This document shows positions 37,252 through 43,066 of a stretch of DNA of 64,000 nucleotides, in pieces (the stretch's first letter is position 1; each line of letters opens with the position of its first letter). The position numbers and the translations under genes were made by a program. The notes below the pieces were generated by a model. The model had not been told where the DNA came from. It saw nothing but the letters and a program-made list of their open reading frames with translations, and ran no database searches. The DNA lies in contig NZ_CP077771.1 in the NCBI RefSeq assembly GCF_019134595.1, forward strand, positions 248,001-312,000, in the 5' to 3' direction. This stretch comes from Pseudoalteromonas shioyasakiensis. Lineage in GTDB: Bacteria; Pseudomonadota; Gammaproteobacteria; Enterobacterales; Alteromonadaceae.

Positions 37252-39762
37252 TTGCGTAATATTACATATTTTTCGTTGTTATTTACTTCTTTTTTTCTCA
37301 GTTTCTGCTTGTTTTCGGCGATCGCACTAAAAGTGTTTTACGATAGACAAGAAATGCATGAGATTGAGCTAAGTGCAGCACTTAACAGTTACAGCAATAA
37401 ACTTGAAAAAGCCCTCGATAACGCACTCCTTGGTCCCTACCTTGTTCGCGCCGCAATGCGTGACTTTGCATATACGCAAACTGAATTCGAAACCCTTGCC
37501 ACAGAGATATTAACTCATAGTGATGGTAGCCAAACTATTCAACTCGCACCAAAAGGGGTAATTCAATACAGCTACCCGCTAACCAGTCACGAGAGTGTGA
37601 TTGGTGTTGATTTATTCAAGATGCAAAGTATTGAAAGGTCATTACAAACAGCCATTGATACTCAAAAAATGCGAATCGATGGACCTAAAGAGTTGGCTCA
37701 AGGTGGTCAAGGATTAGTCGCTCGATTACCAATTTTTGATCAAAATGAGTTTTGGGGGTTTGCAATCGCGGTGCTGCGCTTTCCAGAATTTATTGCAAAT
37801 TTGAGCCCTGAGAGCTCCTCCCCCTCTCACCTCTATGAGGTTTGGCAAAAAACAACGAATAACTACTTGCCGCTTTTAAATAACCACGGTTTTGAAGAAA
37901 ACCACTGGTCAACTTACAACCTCGATGTTGAAAATCAGCATTGGGTTGTGGGTATTAAAGACGAGTTTGCTTATCGGGCGCATGTTGAATTTTTAGTATT
38001 ATTACTCATTGCTCTGTTACTTTCATCGGTTAGCTGCTATTTGATTACGATTACTTTTCGGTTACGTGAGCATGAGCAAAACCTCGAAAAACTTGTGCAA
38101 AAGCAAACCTTAGAGCTGTCTGAACAGGCACTTGAATTAAAACAAGCTCAGTCACTCAGTGGCGTAGGTAGTTGGCATCTGTCGCCTGATAAAAGCATTA
38201 GGCAACTATCATCACAAGCTAAATCGCTATTCAAAGAACAAAGCAAAGCGCAATCAATTACTGATGTCTGTAAAAAAATCGATAGCTTTTATAAAAATTC
38301 GTTTTTAAATTTTATTCATACTAAGCCTAGTAACCCAACTGAAATTGAGTACACGATTAAACTCAATGGAGAAAAACGCTGGTTTCATGAACACGCTGAA
38401 TGGAACCCTAAAACCAACACCTTGGTTGGTACGATTAAAGACATAAGTGCTGAAAAACAACGCCAACATGAGCTTTACCAGCAAGCACATTTTGACTCGG
38501 TCACCGGCCTTGCCAATCGCCATTACAGCGAAAAATATATCGCTAGTTTATGCCCTGAAGACCAATACAGTAGCGGCCTTACTTTATTGTGTGCCGAGAT
38601 CAAAGGCTATCGTCAATTAGAAGATATTTACGGTCAAGATTACTTAAATGAACTACAGACAACGATAGCTAACCGGCTAATTGAATTTTCTGACTTACAT
38701 CAAGCGTTTTGCGCTCATATAAAACCTGGCTGTTTTTTAATATTACTAAAAGAAGCCATTTTTGATGAAAAACTCGCCGCCCTATTAGATAAATTACAGC
38801 ATCAGGTCGGCGGTATTATTGAAACCGCTGGTAGCGCTCATTTTTACCACTTATACATTGGCGTGGGCTATCCGCATTTACAAAACATCGATGCGGCTGA
38901 GCAAATCAACACAGCCCTCATTGCGATGAATGAATGCCCTCGCACACAAAAACCGTTCACAGTTTATAGCCAATCTCTAAAAGATAAGCTTATTGCACAA
39001 AGTAACCTCGAAAGTGATCTACGCCATGCGCTTGCGGCCAACGAACAGCTAAGTATGGTGTATCAGCCTATTGTAAACACTCTAGATGGCACACTGATTG
39101 GCTGTGAAGCGCTTGTACGTTGGCAGCACCCTGTTAGAGGCTTTGTGTCACCTGTTGAGTTTATTGCCATCGCTGAGCAATCAGAGCTTATTAATTTATT
39201 ATCTCGTTGGATTGTTGCTAAGGTTGCTGAAGATTGCCACCGCATGGTTGATAACAACATTCGCATTAAAGTATCGATCAACCTGTCGCGTAAGCAGTTC
39301 TCTGATGTGCATTTAGTTAAACGACTCAGTAAAGAAAAAGCTAAGCTGTTTCCGGCTAATCAAAAAATTAATCTTGAGATCACCGAATCAGCCCTATTTC
39401 AAAATACCCAATACGCCATAAACCTAATGCATGAACTTAAATTAGCAGGTTTTAATTTATCACTTGATGACTTTGGAACGGGTTATTCATCGCTGTCGTC
39501 GATTCAGCAGTTTCCGTTAGATAACGTTAAGATTGACCGTGCCTTTATTTGTAACTGCGTTGATAACCCACGAGATGGTTTATTTTTACAAACGATGAGT
39601 GATTTAGCCCATCAACTAGACTTAACGATTACTGCTGAAGGGGTCGAAAGCTCAGAGCAATGGCAGTTGGTGAGTGATAAAGGCATTGATTATATTCAAG
39701 GTTACTTAATATCAATGCCCTTATCTATTGATGATTTTATAGCGTTTGACCCGGTTGCGTAA
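37252..39762 (+). CDS. CHASE-like sensor GGDEF-EAL protein, probable c-di-GMP phosphodiesterase
   Basis: The 836-residue membrane protein has a helix at 5-27 and a periplasmic CHASE-like domain at about 40-240 (GVDLFKMQSIERSL, IDGPKELAQGGQGLVARLP). A second helix lies at about 246-268, then a coiled coil, a PAS-like segment, a GGDEF-like domain (about 410-570) and an EAL domain (about 580-830). The GGDEF motif is lost (replaced by IKPGCFL). The EAL set is intact: CEALVRW, INLSRKQF, EITESA, LDDFGTGYSS, VKIDRAFI, AEGVES, QGYLISMPL. The start is a TTG after CAGGGACGCCA, with no better ATG nearby. Confidence 0.88.
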   Translation: MRNITYFSLLFTSFFLSFCLFSAIALKVFYDRQEMHEIELSAALNSYSNKLEKALDNALLGPYLVRAAMRDFAYTQTEFETLATEILTHSDGSQTIQLAPKGVIQYSYPLTSHESVIGVDLFKMQSIERSLQTAIDTQKMRIDGPKELAQGGQGLVARLPIFDQNEFWGFAIAVLRFPEFIANLSPESSSPSHLYEVWQKTTNNYLPLLNNHGFEENHWSTYNLDVENQHWVVGIKDEFAYRAHVEFLVLLLIALLLSSVSCYLITITFRLREHEQNLEKLVQKQTLELSEQALELKQAQSLSGVGSWHLSPDKSIRQLSSQAKSLFKEQSKAQSITDVCKKIDSFYKNSFLNFIHTKPSNPTEIEYTIKLNGEKRWFHEHAEWNPKTNTLVGTIKDISAEKQRQHELYQQAHFDSVTGLANRHYSEKYIASLCPEDQYSSGLTLLCAEIKGYRQLEDIYGQDYLNELQTTIANRLIEFSDLHQAFCAHIKPGCFLILLKEAIFDEKLAALLDKLQHQVGGIIETAGSAHFYHLYIGVGYPHLQNIDAAEQINTALIAMNECPRTQKPFTVYSQSLKDKLIAQSNLESDLRHALAANEQLSMVYQPIVNTLDGTLIGCEALVRWQHPVRGFVSPVEFIAIAEQSELINLLSRWIVAKVAEDCHRMVDNNIRIKVSINLSRKQFSDVHLVKRLSKEKAKLFPANQKINLEITESALFQNTQYAINLMHELKLAGFNLSLDDFGTGYSSLSSIQQFPLDNVKIDRAFICNCVDNPRDGLFLQTMSDLAHQLDLTITAEGVESSEQWQLVSDKGIDYIQGYLISMPLSIDDFIAFDPVA

Positions 39763-41318: not shown

Positions 41319-41720
41319 TAAACATATTGAGCAGTGCCTAATATAAAAACACTGCTCAACTAGTATACTTTAAAGAAACAAAAAAGTTTCAATTAAAATA
41401 CCATTTTAATTCAATGCCATATAACTTAACTGAAAACATATTCTATTTAGAATCAAAATCATAAAAAATACCCAAAAAACACACGCTGATCCCAAAACAG
41501 ATCCAGAATAACTGCTTTAAGGTACAAGAATAATAAATTTATACTAATTATTTTGCATTAAATAATTATTCACCTACACTTCTTTTCAATCATTATTTCT
41601 AGAATACGAAATATGATTTAAACCACGTTTAAAAAGCAGGTATTTTGAACACTATTTAGGAACTATTAATAGATGTTCATGCAGTCATACAAATATGTTT
41701 TTAACAAAACTAATGTATTA
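41319..41720. other. AT-rich leader region upstream of the riboswitch
   Basis: About 400 bases without a convincing gene, strongly AT-rich. It must contain the promoter for the riboswitch transcript. I see no clear operator. Confidence 0.5.
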
Positions 41721-41812
41721 ATACTGCCAAACCTACTGTGAGGTAGGGACGGAAAGCCACGGGTCTTCTCTGAAAGAAGTAAGGAAATGGGAAGATAGCC
41801 GGGTTGTGGAAT
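41721..41812 (+). ncRNA. c-di-GMP-I (GEMM) riboswitch
   Basis: The conserved elements of the GEMM-I aptamer appear in order: GCCAAACC (41725-41732), the P2 arm CCTACTGTGAGGTAGG, the core GGGACGGAAAGCC (with G where most members have C in GACGCAAAG), the second arm from ACGGGTCTTC to GAAGAT, and the closing AGCCGGGTTG (41797-41806). Only about 20 bases separate the aptamer from the ATG at 41828, with no terminator between. Control is therefore more likely at translation than transcription. Confidence 0.88.
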
Positions 41813-41827
41813 TTGGAATCCAGAACA

Positions 41828-42577
41828 ATGAAACATCACATCTTTAGCACAGCATTACTTGCTGTCGCTTTCACATCAACAGCTTACGCAGTAGACGATC
41901 CGAATTTTGGTGCACAGTCATTGCGAGGCGAAATCGGCACTAAAGGAGTTTTCTTGACCATTCCTTACGATGAAGTTCGTTATGGTAATGGCGATAACAA
42001 AGCGTATATAAAACCTGAAGAATATAAAATGATGTACTCTGATAGCATTGGCGGCAAAGTAACCTGCCCAGCTATTAAAGGGCCAGGTTTAAAAGGATTG
42101 AATTACCACCAATTCAAAAACGGCATTGAATGCTCATGGAAGTCTCGCCCCGGCAGTAATGCCGAAATTATTACTTTTACTTTATCGCCAGGTGGAGACA
42201 CAGGTAAGTCACCGAAACATTATCGGGGTAAAAATAAAGTCGTAACATGGAAAGGAACTATTTACGATGCAAATGGCCAAGGTGTTGTAAAGCAAGGCTA
42301 TAAAGCAACGCTAAAGTTAGATATGTACGATTATCGTAACGGCAATTCTCACAAAGCTTTTGTTTTTAAAAAGAACCATAAAGTGAAGCTTGGAGATTTT
42401 ACGTCGACTAAAGGTTCAATCCGTGACTTTATTTGTAACTTTAATGGTCAAAAAATAAATGTACTAAAAGATCATGCACCTGTTGGTCAATTTGGTAAAA
42501 AAGGCGTCAAGTGCACTTACATGCTTAAACAAAATGGTAAAGACCCACATTACTATGGTGAAGTCGTATTTAAATAA
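41828..42577 (+). CDS. riboswitch-controlled secreted protein of unknown function
   Basis: The 249-residue protein has a clear signal peptide (cleavage near TAYA, residue 21). The mature protein is basic and strand-rich and seems to be two related halves. The first contains YGNGDNKAYI, then a Cys-to-Cys segment (VTCPAIKG to GIECSW). The second contains YRNGNSHKAFVF, then another Cys-to-Cys segment (FICNFNG to VKCTYM). I do not recognise the family. Known genes behind such riboswitches include adhesins and chitin-binding proteins, so a surface or matrix role is possible. I use ATG 41828 because the frame upstream of it is inside the riboswitch. Confidence 0.82.
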   Translation: MKHHIFSTALLAVAFTSTAYAVDDPNFGAQSLRGEIGTKGVFLTIPYDEVRYGNGDNKAYIKPEEYKMMYSDSIGGKVTCPAIKGPGLKGLNYHQFKNGIECSWKSRPGSNAEIITFTLSPGGDTGKSPKHYRGKNKVVTWKGTIYDANGQGVVKQGYKATLKLDMYDYRNGNSHKAFVFKKNHKVKLGDFTSTKGSIRDFICNFNGQKINVLKDHAPVGQFGKKGVKCTYMLKQNGKDPHYYGEVVFK

Positions 42578-42625
42578 TAGATTTAAAAACAATTAATAAA
42601 CGACTGTTAATTTTCCTTTTCATTC

Positions 42626-42652
42626 AAAGCCTAGCCTGCGCTAGGCTTTTTT
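42626..42652. terminator. terminator after the riboswitch-controlled gene
   Basis: AAAGCCTAGC (42626-42635) pairs perfectly with GCTAGGCTTT (42640-42649), followed by TTT. It can also serve the convergent gene. Confidence 0.8.
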
Positions 42653-42655
42653 AAC

Positions 42656-43066
42656 TCACTTTAAGTAGCACATATTTTCAACAACAATCCCTGTTACTTC
42701 ACAATGTTCGCAGCTCAACTGCCAACCAGCAGCCCATGTGGTTGCGCTAAGATTTCCTTTGCAAAGTGGGCAAACTTCGCCAACAAACGTACTTGGGGTA
42801 ATATCTTTAGCTCGCTTTGAAAATGGCCTTAAAAACCAAAGAATATTATCGTCGATACTGATGGTTAGATCGTGGCGTAACGTCTCACAATACGCATTAA
42901 ACACTGCTTGTTTGTACTGTTTTGCGTGCTCAGCAGATTGACTGGCATAAACACTGAGTGCATTTTCGATGTTTCTTAGACGATCGGGCCATGCTTGTGC
43001 GTCTATATTCGCTTTGCAATCTAACAGCTCTTCAAGAGTGTAACTTGCATAGTTTGGTTCAAACAT
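42656..43066 (-). CDS. hypothetical protein with C-terminal zinc ribbon
   Basis: The 136-residue soluble protein has an N-terminal helical part with several Tyr and His. A C-terminal pair CPLC and CEHC (about residues 100-125) could bind one zinc ion. I do not recognise a family. It lies 24 bases downstream of the Sel1-like gene on the same strand. Confidence 0.6.
   Translation of the reverse strand: MFEPNYASYTLEELLDCKANIDAQAWPDRLRNIENALSVYASQSAEHAKQYKQAVFNAYCETLRHDLTISIDDNILWFLRPFSKRAKDITPSTFVGEVCPLCKGNLSATTWAAGWQLSCEHCEVTGIVVENMCYLK

What the first reader, a model, noticed from the sequence alone, without database searches (positions are those of the whole stretch)
41721..42577. c-di-GMP riboswitch controlling an unknown duplicated secreted protein
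The GEMM-I aptamer is complete and ends about 20 bases before the start codon. The product has a signal peptide and two related halves, each with an NG..KA(Y/F) strand and a two-Cys segment, and matches no family I know. It could be a new c-di-GMP-controlled matrix, adhesin or surface-binding protein.
Basis: partly seen in the sequence, partly recalled or inferred. Interest (0 to 1): 0.8.

Follow-up and report, generated by a model that had tools for sequence, protein, structure and literature searches.

The report
Riboswitch-controlled secreted two-domain orphan protein
In a marine Pseudoalteromonas, an RNA segment that matches the c-di-GMP riboswitch family sits 16 bases ahead of a gene for an internally duplicated, likely secreted protein that matches no family in the libraries searched, so the cell's "settle or swim" signal would likely set how much of this predicted surface-binding protein is made.

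Summary
A complete c-di-GMP-I (GEMM-I) aptamer lies at 41716-41811 (59.8 bits, cut-off 35), 16 nt before a 249-aa ORF (41828-42577) with a signal-peptide-like start. The halves are homologous (hhalign over 13 family members, E 5.9e-37). RNA and gene occur together in 3 of 108 genus genomes; in three relatives the whole 1.33-kb cassette is missing between the same neighbours. Aptamer plus spacer differ at 1 and 0 of 112 sites, against 25 and 30 of 335 upstream, though the 65 nt just upstream are nearly as constant. The protein family is tiny: 14 cluster ids from three searches of 5.8 billion sequences, no Pfam, NCBIfam or PHROGs match for P0001, no significant fold match. My mechanism, a weak translational OFF switch on a secreted surface- or glycan-binding protein, is inferred; ligand, direction and target are untested.

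The parts
41716..41811 (+). c-di-GMP-I (GEMM-I, RF01051) aptamer, full length
   Evidence: cmscan 59.8 bits, GA 35, E 3.5e-9; the two other species' copies score 59.8 and 60.0 (L004/L007 and L005/L006 are the same two places)
41727..41752 (+). flipped pair C41727-G41752 (Vc2 G21-C46 position), beside G41726 (G20) and A41753 (A47), which are kept
   Evidence: for positions; 4 of 114 genus hits carry CC at positions 12-13; Vc2 numbering partly from recall, checked against PMC3764141 passages
41807..41807 (+). U at the position of Vc2 C92, the base that pairs with one guanine of c-di-GMP (pairing role recalled)
41807..41822 (+). predicted switching hairpin: UGGA 41807-41810 (edge of the aptamer) with UCCA 41819-41822; UCCA's CCA can instead pair with UGG 41814-41816 of the ribosome site
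   Evidence: ViennaRNA; inference
41815..41817 (+). putative Shine-Dalgarno GGA, 10 nt before the ATG
   Evidence: sequence; inference from a recalled rule
41828..42577 (+). ORF, 249 aa (P0001), tandem-domain orphan, likely secreted
   Evidence: homologues; codon changes mostly synonymous
41828..41890 (+). signal-peptide-like N terminus, residues 1-21 (ends A-Y-A)
   Evidence: by eye; pLDDT below 50 for residues 1-4 and 6-22
41897..42202 (+). N-terminal domain copy, about residues 24-125; Cys80/Cys102
42224..42574 (+). C-terminal domain copy, about residues 133-249; Cys203/Cys229
42633..42647 (+). terminator-like hairpin with T run, after the ORF
   Evidence: 2 sites found in the scanned region, 0.8 expected in shuffles
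41326..42659 (+). cassette (upstream region, riboswitch, gene, terminator) absent from the same site in G066, G073 and G023

Best explanation
A c-di-GMP-I riboswitch aptamer lies directly upstream of a gene for a duplicated, likely secreted protein, and ligand binding would likely control translation of that protein at its start site. Predicted working: P2 and P3 form with or without ligand. Without ligand, the four bases UGGA at the aptamer's 3' edge (41807-41810, including ligand-contact position 92) pair with UCCA (41819-41822) and leave the ribosome-site GGA (41815-41817) in an open loop. When ligand holds the aptamer edge, UCCA is freed to pair with the ribosome-site copy, which closes its two G: an OFF switch. 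I put the direction at about 55 to 45 only. The product would leave the cytoplasm by the Sec route and fold into two related beta domains, each likely held by one disulfide, and would likely bind a surface or polysaccharide. Shown: aptamer match, linkage with the gene, constraint on the protein and on the leader, duplication. Inferred: export, disulfides, switch direction, binding role. Not shown: ligand.
For: RF01051 59.8 bits. Riboswitch and gene are together in 3 of 3 genus genomes that hold the gene. Aptamer plus spacer: 1/112 and 0/112 differences against 25/335 and 30/335 in 41319-41650 (Fisher p 0.0086 and 0.00025). Codon changes synonymous/non-synonymous 27/4 and 36/13. Duplication: hhalign E 5.9e-37 over 13 proteins. 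Folding: unpaired probability of GGA's two G is 0.86-0.87 free, 0.68-0.70 with P2 and P3 imposed, 0.43-0.45 with base 92 also held, 0.06-0.13 with P1 also formed. Each of the 13 members has either a Cys pair in both domains or no Cys there at all (P0013-P0015 none; and the sequences). Genus-wide, 104 of 114 tabulated GEMM-I hits fell into a named target group, 71 of them GbpA-like, CBM2, hyaluronate-lyase-like or polysaccharide lyase. In Vc1, mutating the residue equivalent to C92 did not change reporter activity (PMC4744006 passage), so U92 need not abolish sensing.
Against: U at 92 and G at 93 depart from consensus and may weaken binding; P1 as drawn has three pairs, one of them G-U. The 65 nt just upstream of the aptamer (41651-41715) and the first 66 coding bases are about as constant as the aptamer (1/65, 2/65; 0/66, 0/66), so against those alone the aptamer does not stand out (p 1.0 and 0.13); with the 65 nt added to the upstream stretch p is 0.015 and 0.0005. 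The competing hairpins are weak (-2.1 and -0.9 kcal/mol), the A of GGA stays open in every state, and the AUG becomes slightly more open, not less, when P1 forms. The scheme was noticed after the fact: 4.5% of shuffled spacers contain UCCA, 0.25% both UCCA and UGGA, 24% some 4-pair partner. The three copies do not vary there, so no covariation test is possible. Vc1 ahead of gbpA acts in the opposite sense (ON; PMC4744006 passages). No sequence or fold match ties the protein to a binding function.
Confidence: 0.45

Rival explanations
1. Same riboswitch, opposite direction: c-di-GMP raises expression (ON), as reported for Vc1 ahead of gbpA, and the protein is a biofilm or attachment factor made when the cell settles.
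For: Vc1 positively regulates downstream expression (PMC4744006 passages); the own genome carries a second GEMM-I ahead of a GbpA-derived gene; the protein is basic (pI 9.6), which would suit acidic polysaccharides; the AUG is slightly more open with P1 formed.
Against: Folding predicts less access to the two G of the ribosome site when the aptamer edge is occupied.
Confidence: 0.38
2. The aptamer reads a different or relaxed ligand: G20 kept, C92 replaced by U, and the neighbouring pair flipped would suit a G on one side and an A on the other (3',3'-cGAMP, in the opposite orientation to the known A20 variants), or c-di-GMP at lower affinity.
For: U92 in all three copies; a G20A/C92U laboratory mutant is reported to bind c-di-AMP (passages of PMC9049102 and PMC7288161), so position 92 takes part in choosing the base.
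Against: U92 with G20 also occurs ahead of 7 of 35 GbpA-like genes in the genus, so it may be a tolerated change with a G-U pair; a DncV-like search of the own genome was empty, but nothing rang in its control genomes either, so it tells little.
Confidence: 0.1
3. Relic: the aptamer has lost ligand binding and is only a 5' leader.
For: Changes at 92 and 93, weak P1; score in the lower part of the genus list (about nine listed hits score lower); the DNA on both sides is nearly as constant.
Against: 0-1 of 112 changes in aptamer plus spacer while 41319-41650 differs by 7-9%; the flipped pair is compensated.
Confidence: 0.12
4. The protein is a secreted enzyme or inhibitor, not a binding protein.
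For: Several GEMM-I target groups in the genus look like lyases and peptidases; conserved polar residues D, N, H, K, E recur in both domains of the family.
Against: Duplication with the motif kept in both halves is typical of binding modules (general knowledge); no enzyme family matches.
Confidence: 0.25

Closest known systems
c-di-GMP-I riboswitch (RF01051); Vc1 ahead of gbpA in Vibrio cholerae
   Same: Aptamer family, G20 and A47 positions, GNRA-type P2 loop (GUGA), 5' UTR position; no terminator between aptamer and start.
   Different: U at 92, G at 93, flipped 21-46 pair; aptamer ends 16 nt before the ATG, whereas in gbpA the motif lies within the first 111 nt and the start codon 225-244 nt after the transcription start (PMC4744006 passages); unrelated target.
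GbpA (N-acetylglucosamine-binding protein A, NF009690 / GbpA_2 PF18416)
   Same: A GEMM-I target; a GbpA-derived gene is the other GEMM-I target in this genome.
   Different: No match of P0001 to NF009690 or PF18416.
NEAT domains (haem-binding, IsdX2/Shp/IsdC), best VIA-align rows for the single domain
   Same: About 115-residue beta domain, aligned over model residues 5-107.
P0009-P0015: uncharacterised tandem-domain proteins, most from unnamed sources, P0010 from an Actinomycetota MAG
   Same: Same two-copy D-x3-Y(R)NG..H(K/R)...PE domain family.
   Different: 22-29% identical to P0001 in the search listings; riboswitch link unknown, as their DNA could not be fetched; P0011 has a lipobox-like N terminus by eye, P0010 thrombospondin-3 repeats.

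Membership tests
c-di-GMP-I riboswitch (RF01051) | Covariance-model score above the curated cut-off | tested here: met
   59.8 bits against 35, full length
c-di-GMP-I riboswitch (RF01051) | P2 and P3 helices with a GNRA-type P2 loop | tested here: met
   Pairs listed; loop GUGA at 41738-41741
c-di-GMP-I riboswitch (RF01051) | Pocket residues G20 and A47 | tested here: met
   G41726, A41753
c-di-GMP-I riboswitch (RF01051) | Pocket residue C92 (consensus; described as less conserved than A47 in PMC9049102, so not by itself defining) | tested here: not met
   U41807; of 114 genus hits 102 show C, 11 U, 1 A by counting from the hit's end without realignment
c-di-GMP-I riboswitch (RF01051) | Binds c-di-GMP | not testable with these tools
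   needs in-line probing or ITC
GbpA | Match to NF009690 or GbpA_2 | tested here: not met
   0 families at E<=1
NEAT domain | Sequence match to a NEAT family | tested here: not met
   0 Pfam families at E<=1
NEAT domain | NEAT fold | tested here: inconclusive
Tandem YRNGNSHK-domain family (defined here) | Two homologous domains, each with a D-x3-Y-x-N-G..K motif | tested here: met
   the following P-E is kept in P0001's first copy and lost in its second
Tandem YRNGNSHK-domain family (defined here) | One Cys pair per domain (not universal: P0013-P0015 have none) | tested here: met
   Cys 80/102 and 203/229; P0014

The most novel reading that the evidence does not exclude
A GEMM-I sub-type with G20/U92 and a flipped 21-46 pair that has shifted or relaxed ligand choice (for example 3',3'-cGAMP), and that switches translation by a decoy: the aptamer's ligand-binding edge is a copy of the ribosome site. 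It comes and goes as a 1.3-kb cassette with a member of a new secreted tandem beta-domain family.
Probability: 0.1. Interest if true: 0.8.

Novelty: new variant of a known kind. Interest (0 to 1): 0.5.

Why it matters
A riboswitch names the signal for a protein about which nothing else is known, so it makes an orphan family testable: change c-di-GMP, watch the protein, find what it binds. It also adds a natural GEMM-I pocket variant whose pocket letters are the same in three species, useful for asking how far ligand choice in this riboswitch class can drift. And it shows a riboswitch and its target present or absent as one unit.

Tried and rejected

Wider homologue hunt: genus 3 of 108 genomes; order sample 1 of 394, the own genome; phylum sample 1 of 398, the own genome; class sample 4 of 369 at E<=0.1, the three besides the own genome being partial matches at 0.045-0.087, rejected as chance; GTDB contigs 2 loci; plasmids none; viral contigs none. 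The Photobacterium sp. BZF1 homologue (55% identical) lies in a record I did not find in the collections, so whether it has the riboswitch is unknown. PADLOC was not searched.

Transcription termination as the switch: the scan shows no terminator between aptamer and ORF; only 16 nt separate them. Promoter: 3 promoter-like sites against 5.1 expected, so none is assigned.

An earlier constrained folding used a P3 register that I had mis-counted by three columns; one search replaces it, and only the Fisher tests are used. One search was an unconstrained fold.

Literature: searches for Pseudoalteromonas with c-di-GMP and riboswitch (7 papers, seen as a listing; none has this subject in its title or the start of its abstract), GEMM/riboswitch/Pseudoalteromonas, cAMP-GMP terms, Vc1/GbpA (listing), C92/G20 (listings). 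Of PMC9049102, PMC4744006, PMC3764141 and PMC7288161 I saw passages only. Smith 2010 on the G20/C92 mutants is not held, so affinities are not quoted.

Full report
What is there. The window holds one Rfam match at gathering threshold: RF01051, c-di-GMP-I, at 41716-41811 on the + strand, whole model, 59.8 bits against a cut-off of 35, E 3.5e-9. Sixteen bases later an ATG opens a 249-aa ORF ending at 42577. The N terminus (MKHHIFSTALLAVAFTSTAYA) reads as a Sec signal peptide by eye. A terminator-like hairpin follows at 42633-42647. The genome has one other GEMM-I, at G000:C1:3685831-3685914, 72.2 bits.

Which organism. The window lies on the 0.90-Mb second contig of a 4.72-Mb genome.

The protein family. 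A first search of 5.77 billion proteins gave 3 clusters: the own cluster with 30 members, one from Photobacterium sp. BZF1 (55% identical) and one from an environmental source (37%). Profile searches added P0005-P0015, 14 ids in all. P0005 is a 135-aa piece, 93% identical, so a shortened version exists. None of P0001, P0003 or P0004 matches NCBIfam at E<=1; in the 12 members of A3 Pfam finds, at E<=0.1, thrombospondin-3 repeats in P0010 and two weak hits below their cut-offs; PHROGs finds nothing for the 3 scanned. No plasmid or viral relative was found. In the genus 3 of 108 genomes hold the gene; in the order and phylum samples only the own genome does (1 of 394; 1 of 398).

The duplication. 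P0001's halves alone align with BLASTP E 0.006 and 28 of 2000 shuffles reach their score. In the other members it is plain: of the 12 others, 11 were tested by shuffling (P0003 and P0004 with 2000 shuffles, nine with 500 each) and in none did a shuffle reach the score; P0014 was not tested there because only one motif was found. hhalign of N against C halves over all 13 gives 99.9%, E 5.9e-37. The domain consensus is about L-x-G-x-F...G-x-x-Y...D-x-x-x-Y-R-N-G-N-S-H-K-x-x-x-x-P-E-x-x-K...V-T-C-P...G-P-G...C-x-W-K-x-G-N-G-S. The two cysteines of a domain are 22 and 26 residues apart in P0001; P0013, P0014 and P0015 have no cysteine at all, which fits a disulfide within each domain. AlphaFold2 gives mainly strands with short helices (pLDDT 78.6 for the whole, 85.3 for domain 1). 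Fold searches gave nothing significant.

The RNA is kept. The three genus loci with the gene have the aptamer at 59.8-60 bits. Between the window and the 0303 locus aptamer plus spacer differ at 1 of 112 columns (in the P3 end region), and at 0 of 112 against P. gelatinilytica, while the intergenic stretch 41319-41650 differs at 25 and 30 of 335 (Fisher p 0.0086 and 0.00025). A caution: the 65 nt next to the aptamer (41651-41715) differ at only 1 and 2 sites and the first 66 coding bases at none. Against the 65 nt alone the aptamer does not stand out (p 1.0 and 0.13); with them added to the upstream stretch p is 0.015 and 0.0005; against the rest of the coding part p is 0.07 and 0.0006. So the whole leader from about 41650 to the signal peptide is constrained, the aptamer within it. 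The coding part after the signal differs by 33 and 51 of 681 bases, with 27 synonymous to 4 non-synonymous and 36 to 13 changed codons: purifying selection on the protein.

A cassette. In G066, G073 and G023, which lack the gene, the left neighbour (yjdM, PhnA family) and the right neighbour (a 136-aa gene with a weak zinc-ribbon resemblance) sit next to each other, 59-63 bases apart between the alignment ends, in place of the window's 41326-42659. G056 and G022 have the right neighbour but showed no match to yjdM within the fetched stretch. So riboswitch, gene and terminator are present or absent as one unit; whether gained or lost is not settled. In P. gelatinilytica a further 2.2 kb with two long ORFs lies to its right.

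The pocket is unusual. Using Vc2 numbering (partly recalled, checked against PMC3764141 and PMC9049102 passages), G20 (G41726) and A47 (A41753) are kept, but position 92 is U (41807) and 93 is G. The first base of pair 21-46 is G in 110 of 114 genus hits by simple counting and C in 4: the three copies here and one in G084, ahead of an RTX-repeat gene. By the same counting (fifth base from the hit's end, not realigned) 102 of 114 hits have C92, 11 U and 1 A. One further hit listed, at 36.2 bits, was not fetched and is not counted. Two papers state that a G20A/C92U mutant binds c-di-AMP (passages), so base 92 helps choose the ligand; in Vc1, mutating the equivalent base did not change reporter activity (passage). 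U92 may pair with G as a wobble and lower affinity, or favour A; only binding tests can tell.

How it may switch. No terminator lies between aptamer and ORF, so translation is the likely level. The aptamer's edge U92-G-G-A (41807-41810) repeats the letters of the putative ribosome site UGGA (41814-41817). One UCCA (41819-41822) can pair with either. In the free fold it takes the aptamer edge and leaves the two G of the ribosome site 86-87% unpaired; with P2 and P3 imposed 68-70%, with base 92 also held free 43-45%, with P1 also imposed 6-13%. That predicts an OFF switch. The energies are small (-2.1 and -0.9 kcal/mol), the A of GGA stays open throughout, the AUG opens slightly with P1, and the pattern was found by looking; shuffled spacers hold both UCCA and UGGA in 0.25% of cases but some 4-pair partner in 24%. 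Vc1 works as an ON switch in V. cholerae, by a mechanism its authors could not assign (PMC4744006 passages). I lean to OFF at about 55%.

What the protein does. The only pointer is the company GEMM-I keeps. 81 of 108 genus genomes have at least one. Of 114 hits, downstream tblastn grouping gave 35 GbpA-like, 22 CBM2-PKD-YceI, 13 hyaluronate-lyase-like (DUF4955), 10 MotY/OmpA-like, 7 M12 and 5 M11 peptidase-like, 4 of a 145-aa unknown, 3 this protein, 2 a 386-aa orphan, 1 each PKD, RTX and polysaccharide lyase, and 10 unassigned (names, which scanned one representative per group). So 71 of 114 carry carbohydrate-related names. Against a simple reading, the largest group (GbpA-like) shows no signal peptide by eye in the two members looked at (L001, L067). 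With the basic charge (pI 9.6; not shared by the distant members) and two repeated domains, a secreted surface- or glycan-binding protein is the best guess, and no more than that.

Verdict. The riboswitch belongs to a known family; its pocket and possible platform are variant; the target family is absent from the libraries searched. Ligand, direction and function remain untested.

Noticed in passing
L016, L019, L021 and 19 further loci: The 22 GEMM-I hits ahead of CBM2-PKD-YceI genes all have A at position 20 by simple counting (a G20A mutant of a c-di-GMP-I riboswitch is said to bind cGAMP, PMC7288161 passage), while the other 92 of 114 hits keep G20. Possible cGAMP-type riboswitches in Pseudoalteromonas.
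   Followed up: partly
L001:824-1399 (-): The other GEMM-I target in this genome is a 191-aa GbpA-derived ORF matching domain 2 and the C-terminal region only; no LPMO domain match and no signal peptide by eye. 35 of 114 genus hits have a target of this group.
   Followed up: partly
L070, L084, L094 and 7 further loci: Ten GEMM-I hits lie ahead of a MotY/OmpA-like gene (one representative, L084, was scanned), which hints at riboswitch control of motility in those species.
   Followed up: no
window 37252-39762 (+): CHASE-GGDEF-EAL protein 2 kb upstream of the riboswitch; in P. gelatinilytica a different EAL-like protein lies at a similar distance (L006:4730-6316, by eye).
   Followed up: no
window 41715-41724: Perfect 10-base palindrome GTATTAATAC overlaps the 5' end of the aptamer, unchanged in the three species.
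   Followed up: no
L132:301-1854 (+), G084: A GEMM-I aptamer with the same flipped 21-46 pair and similar P3 letters sits ahead of a 518-aa RTX-repeat gene.
   Followed up: no
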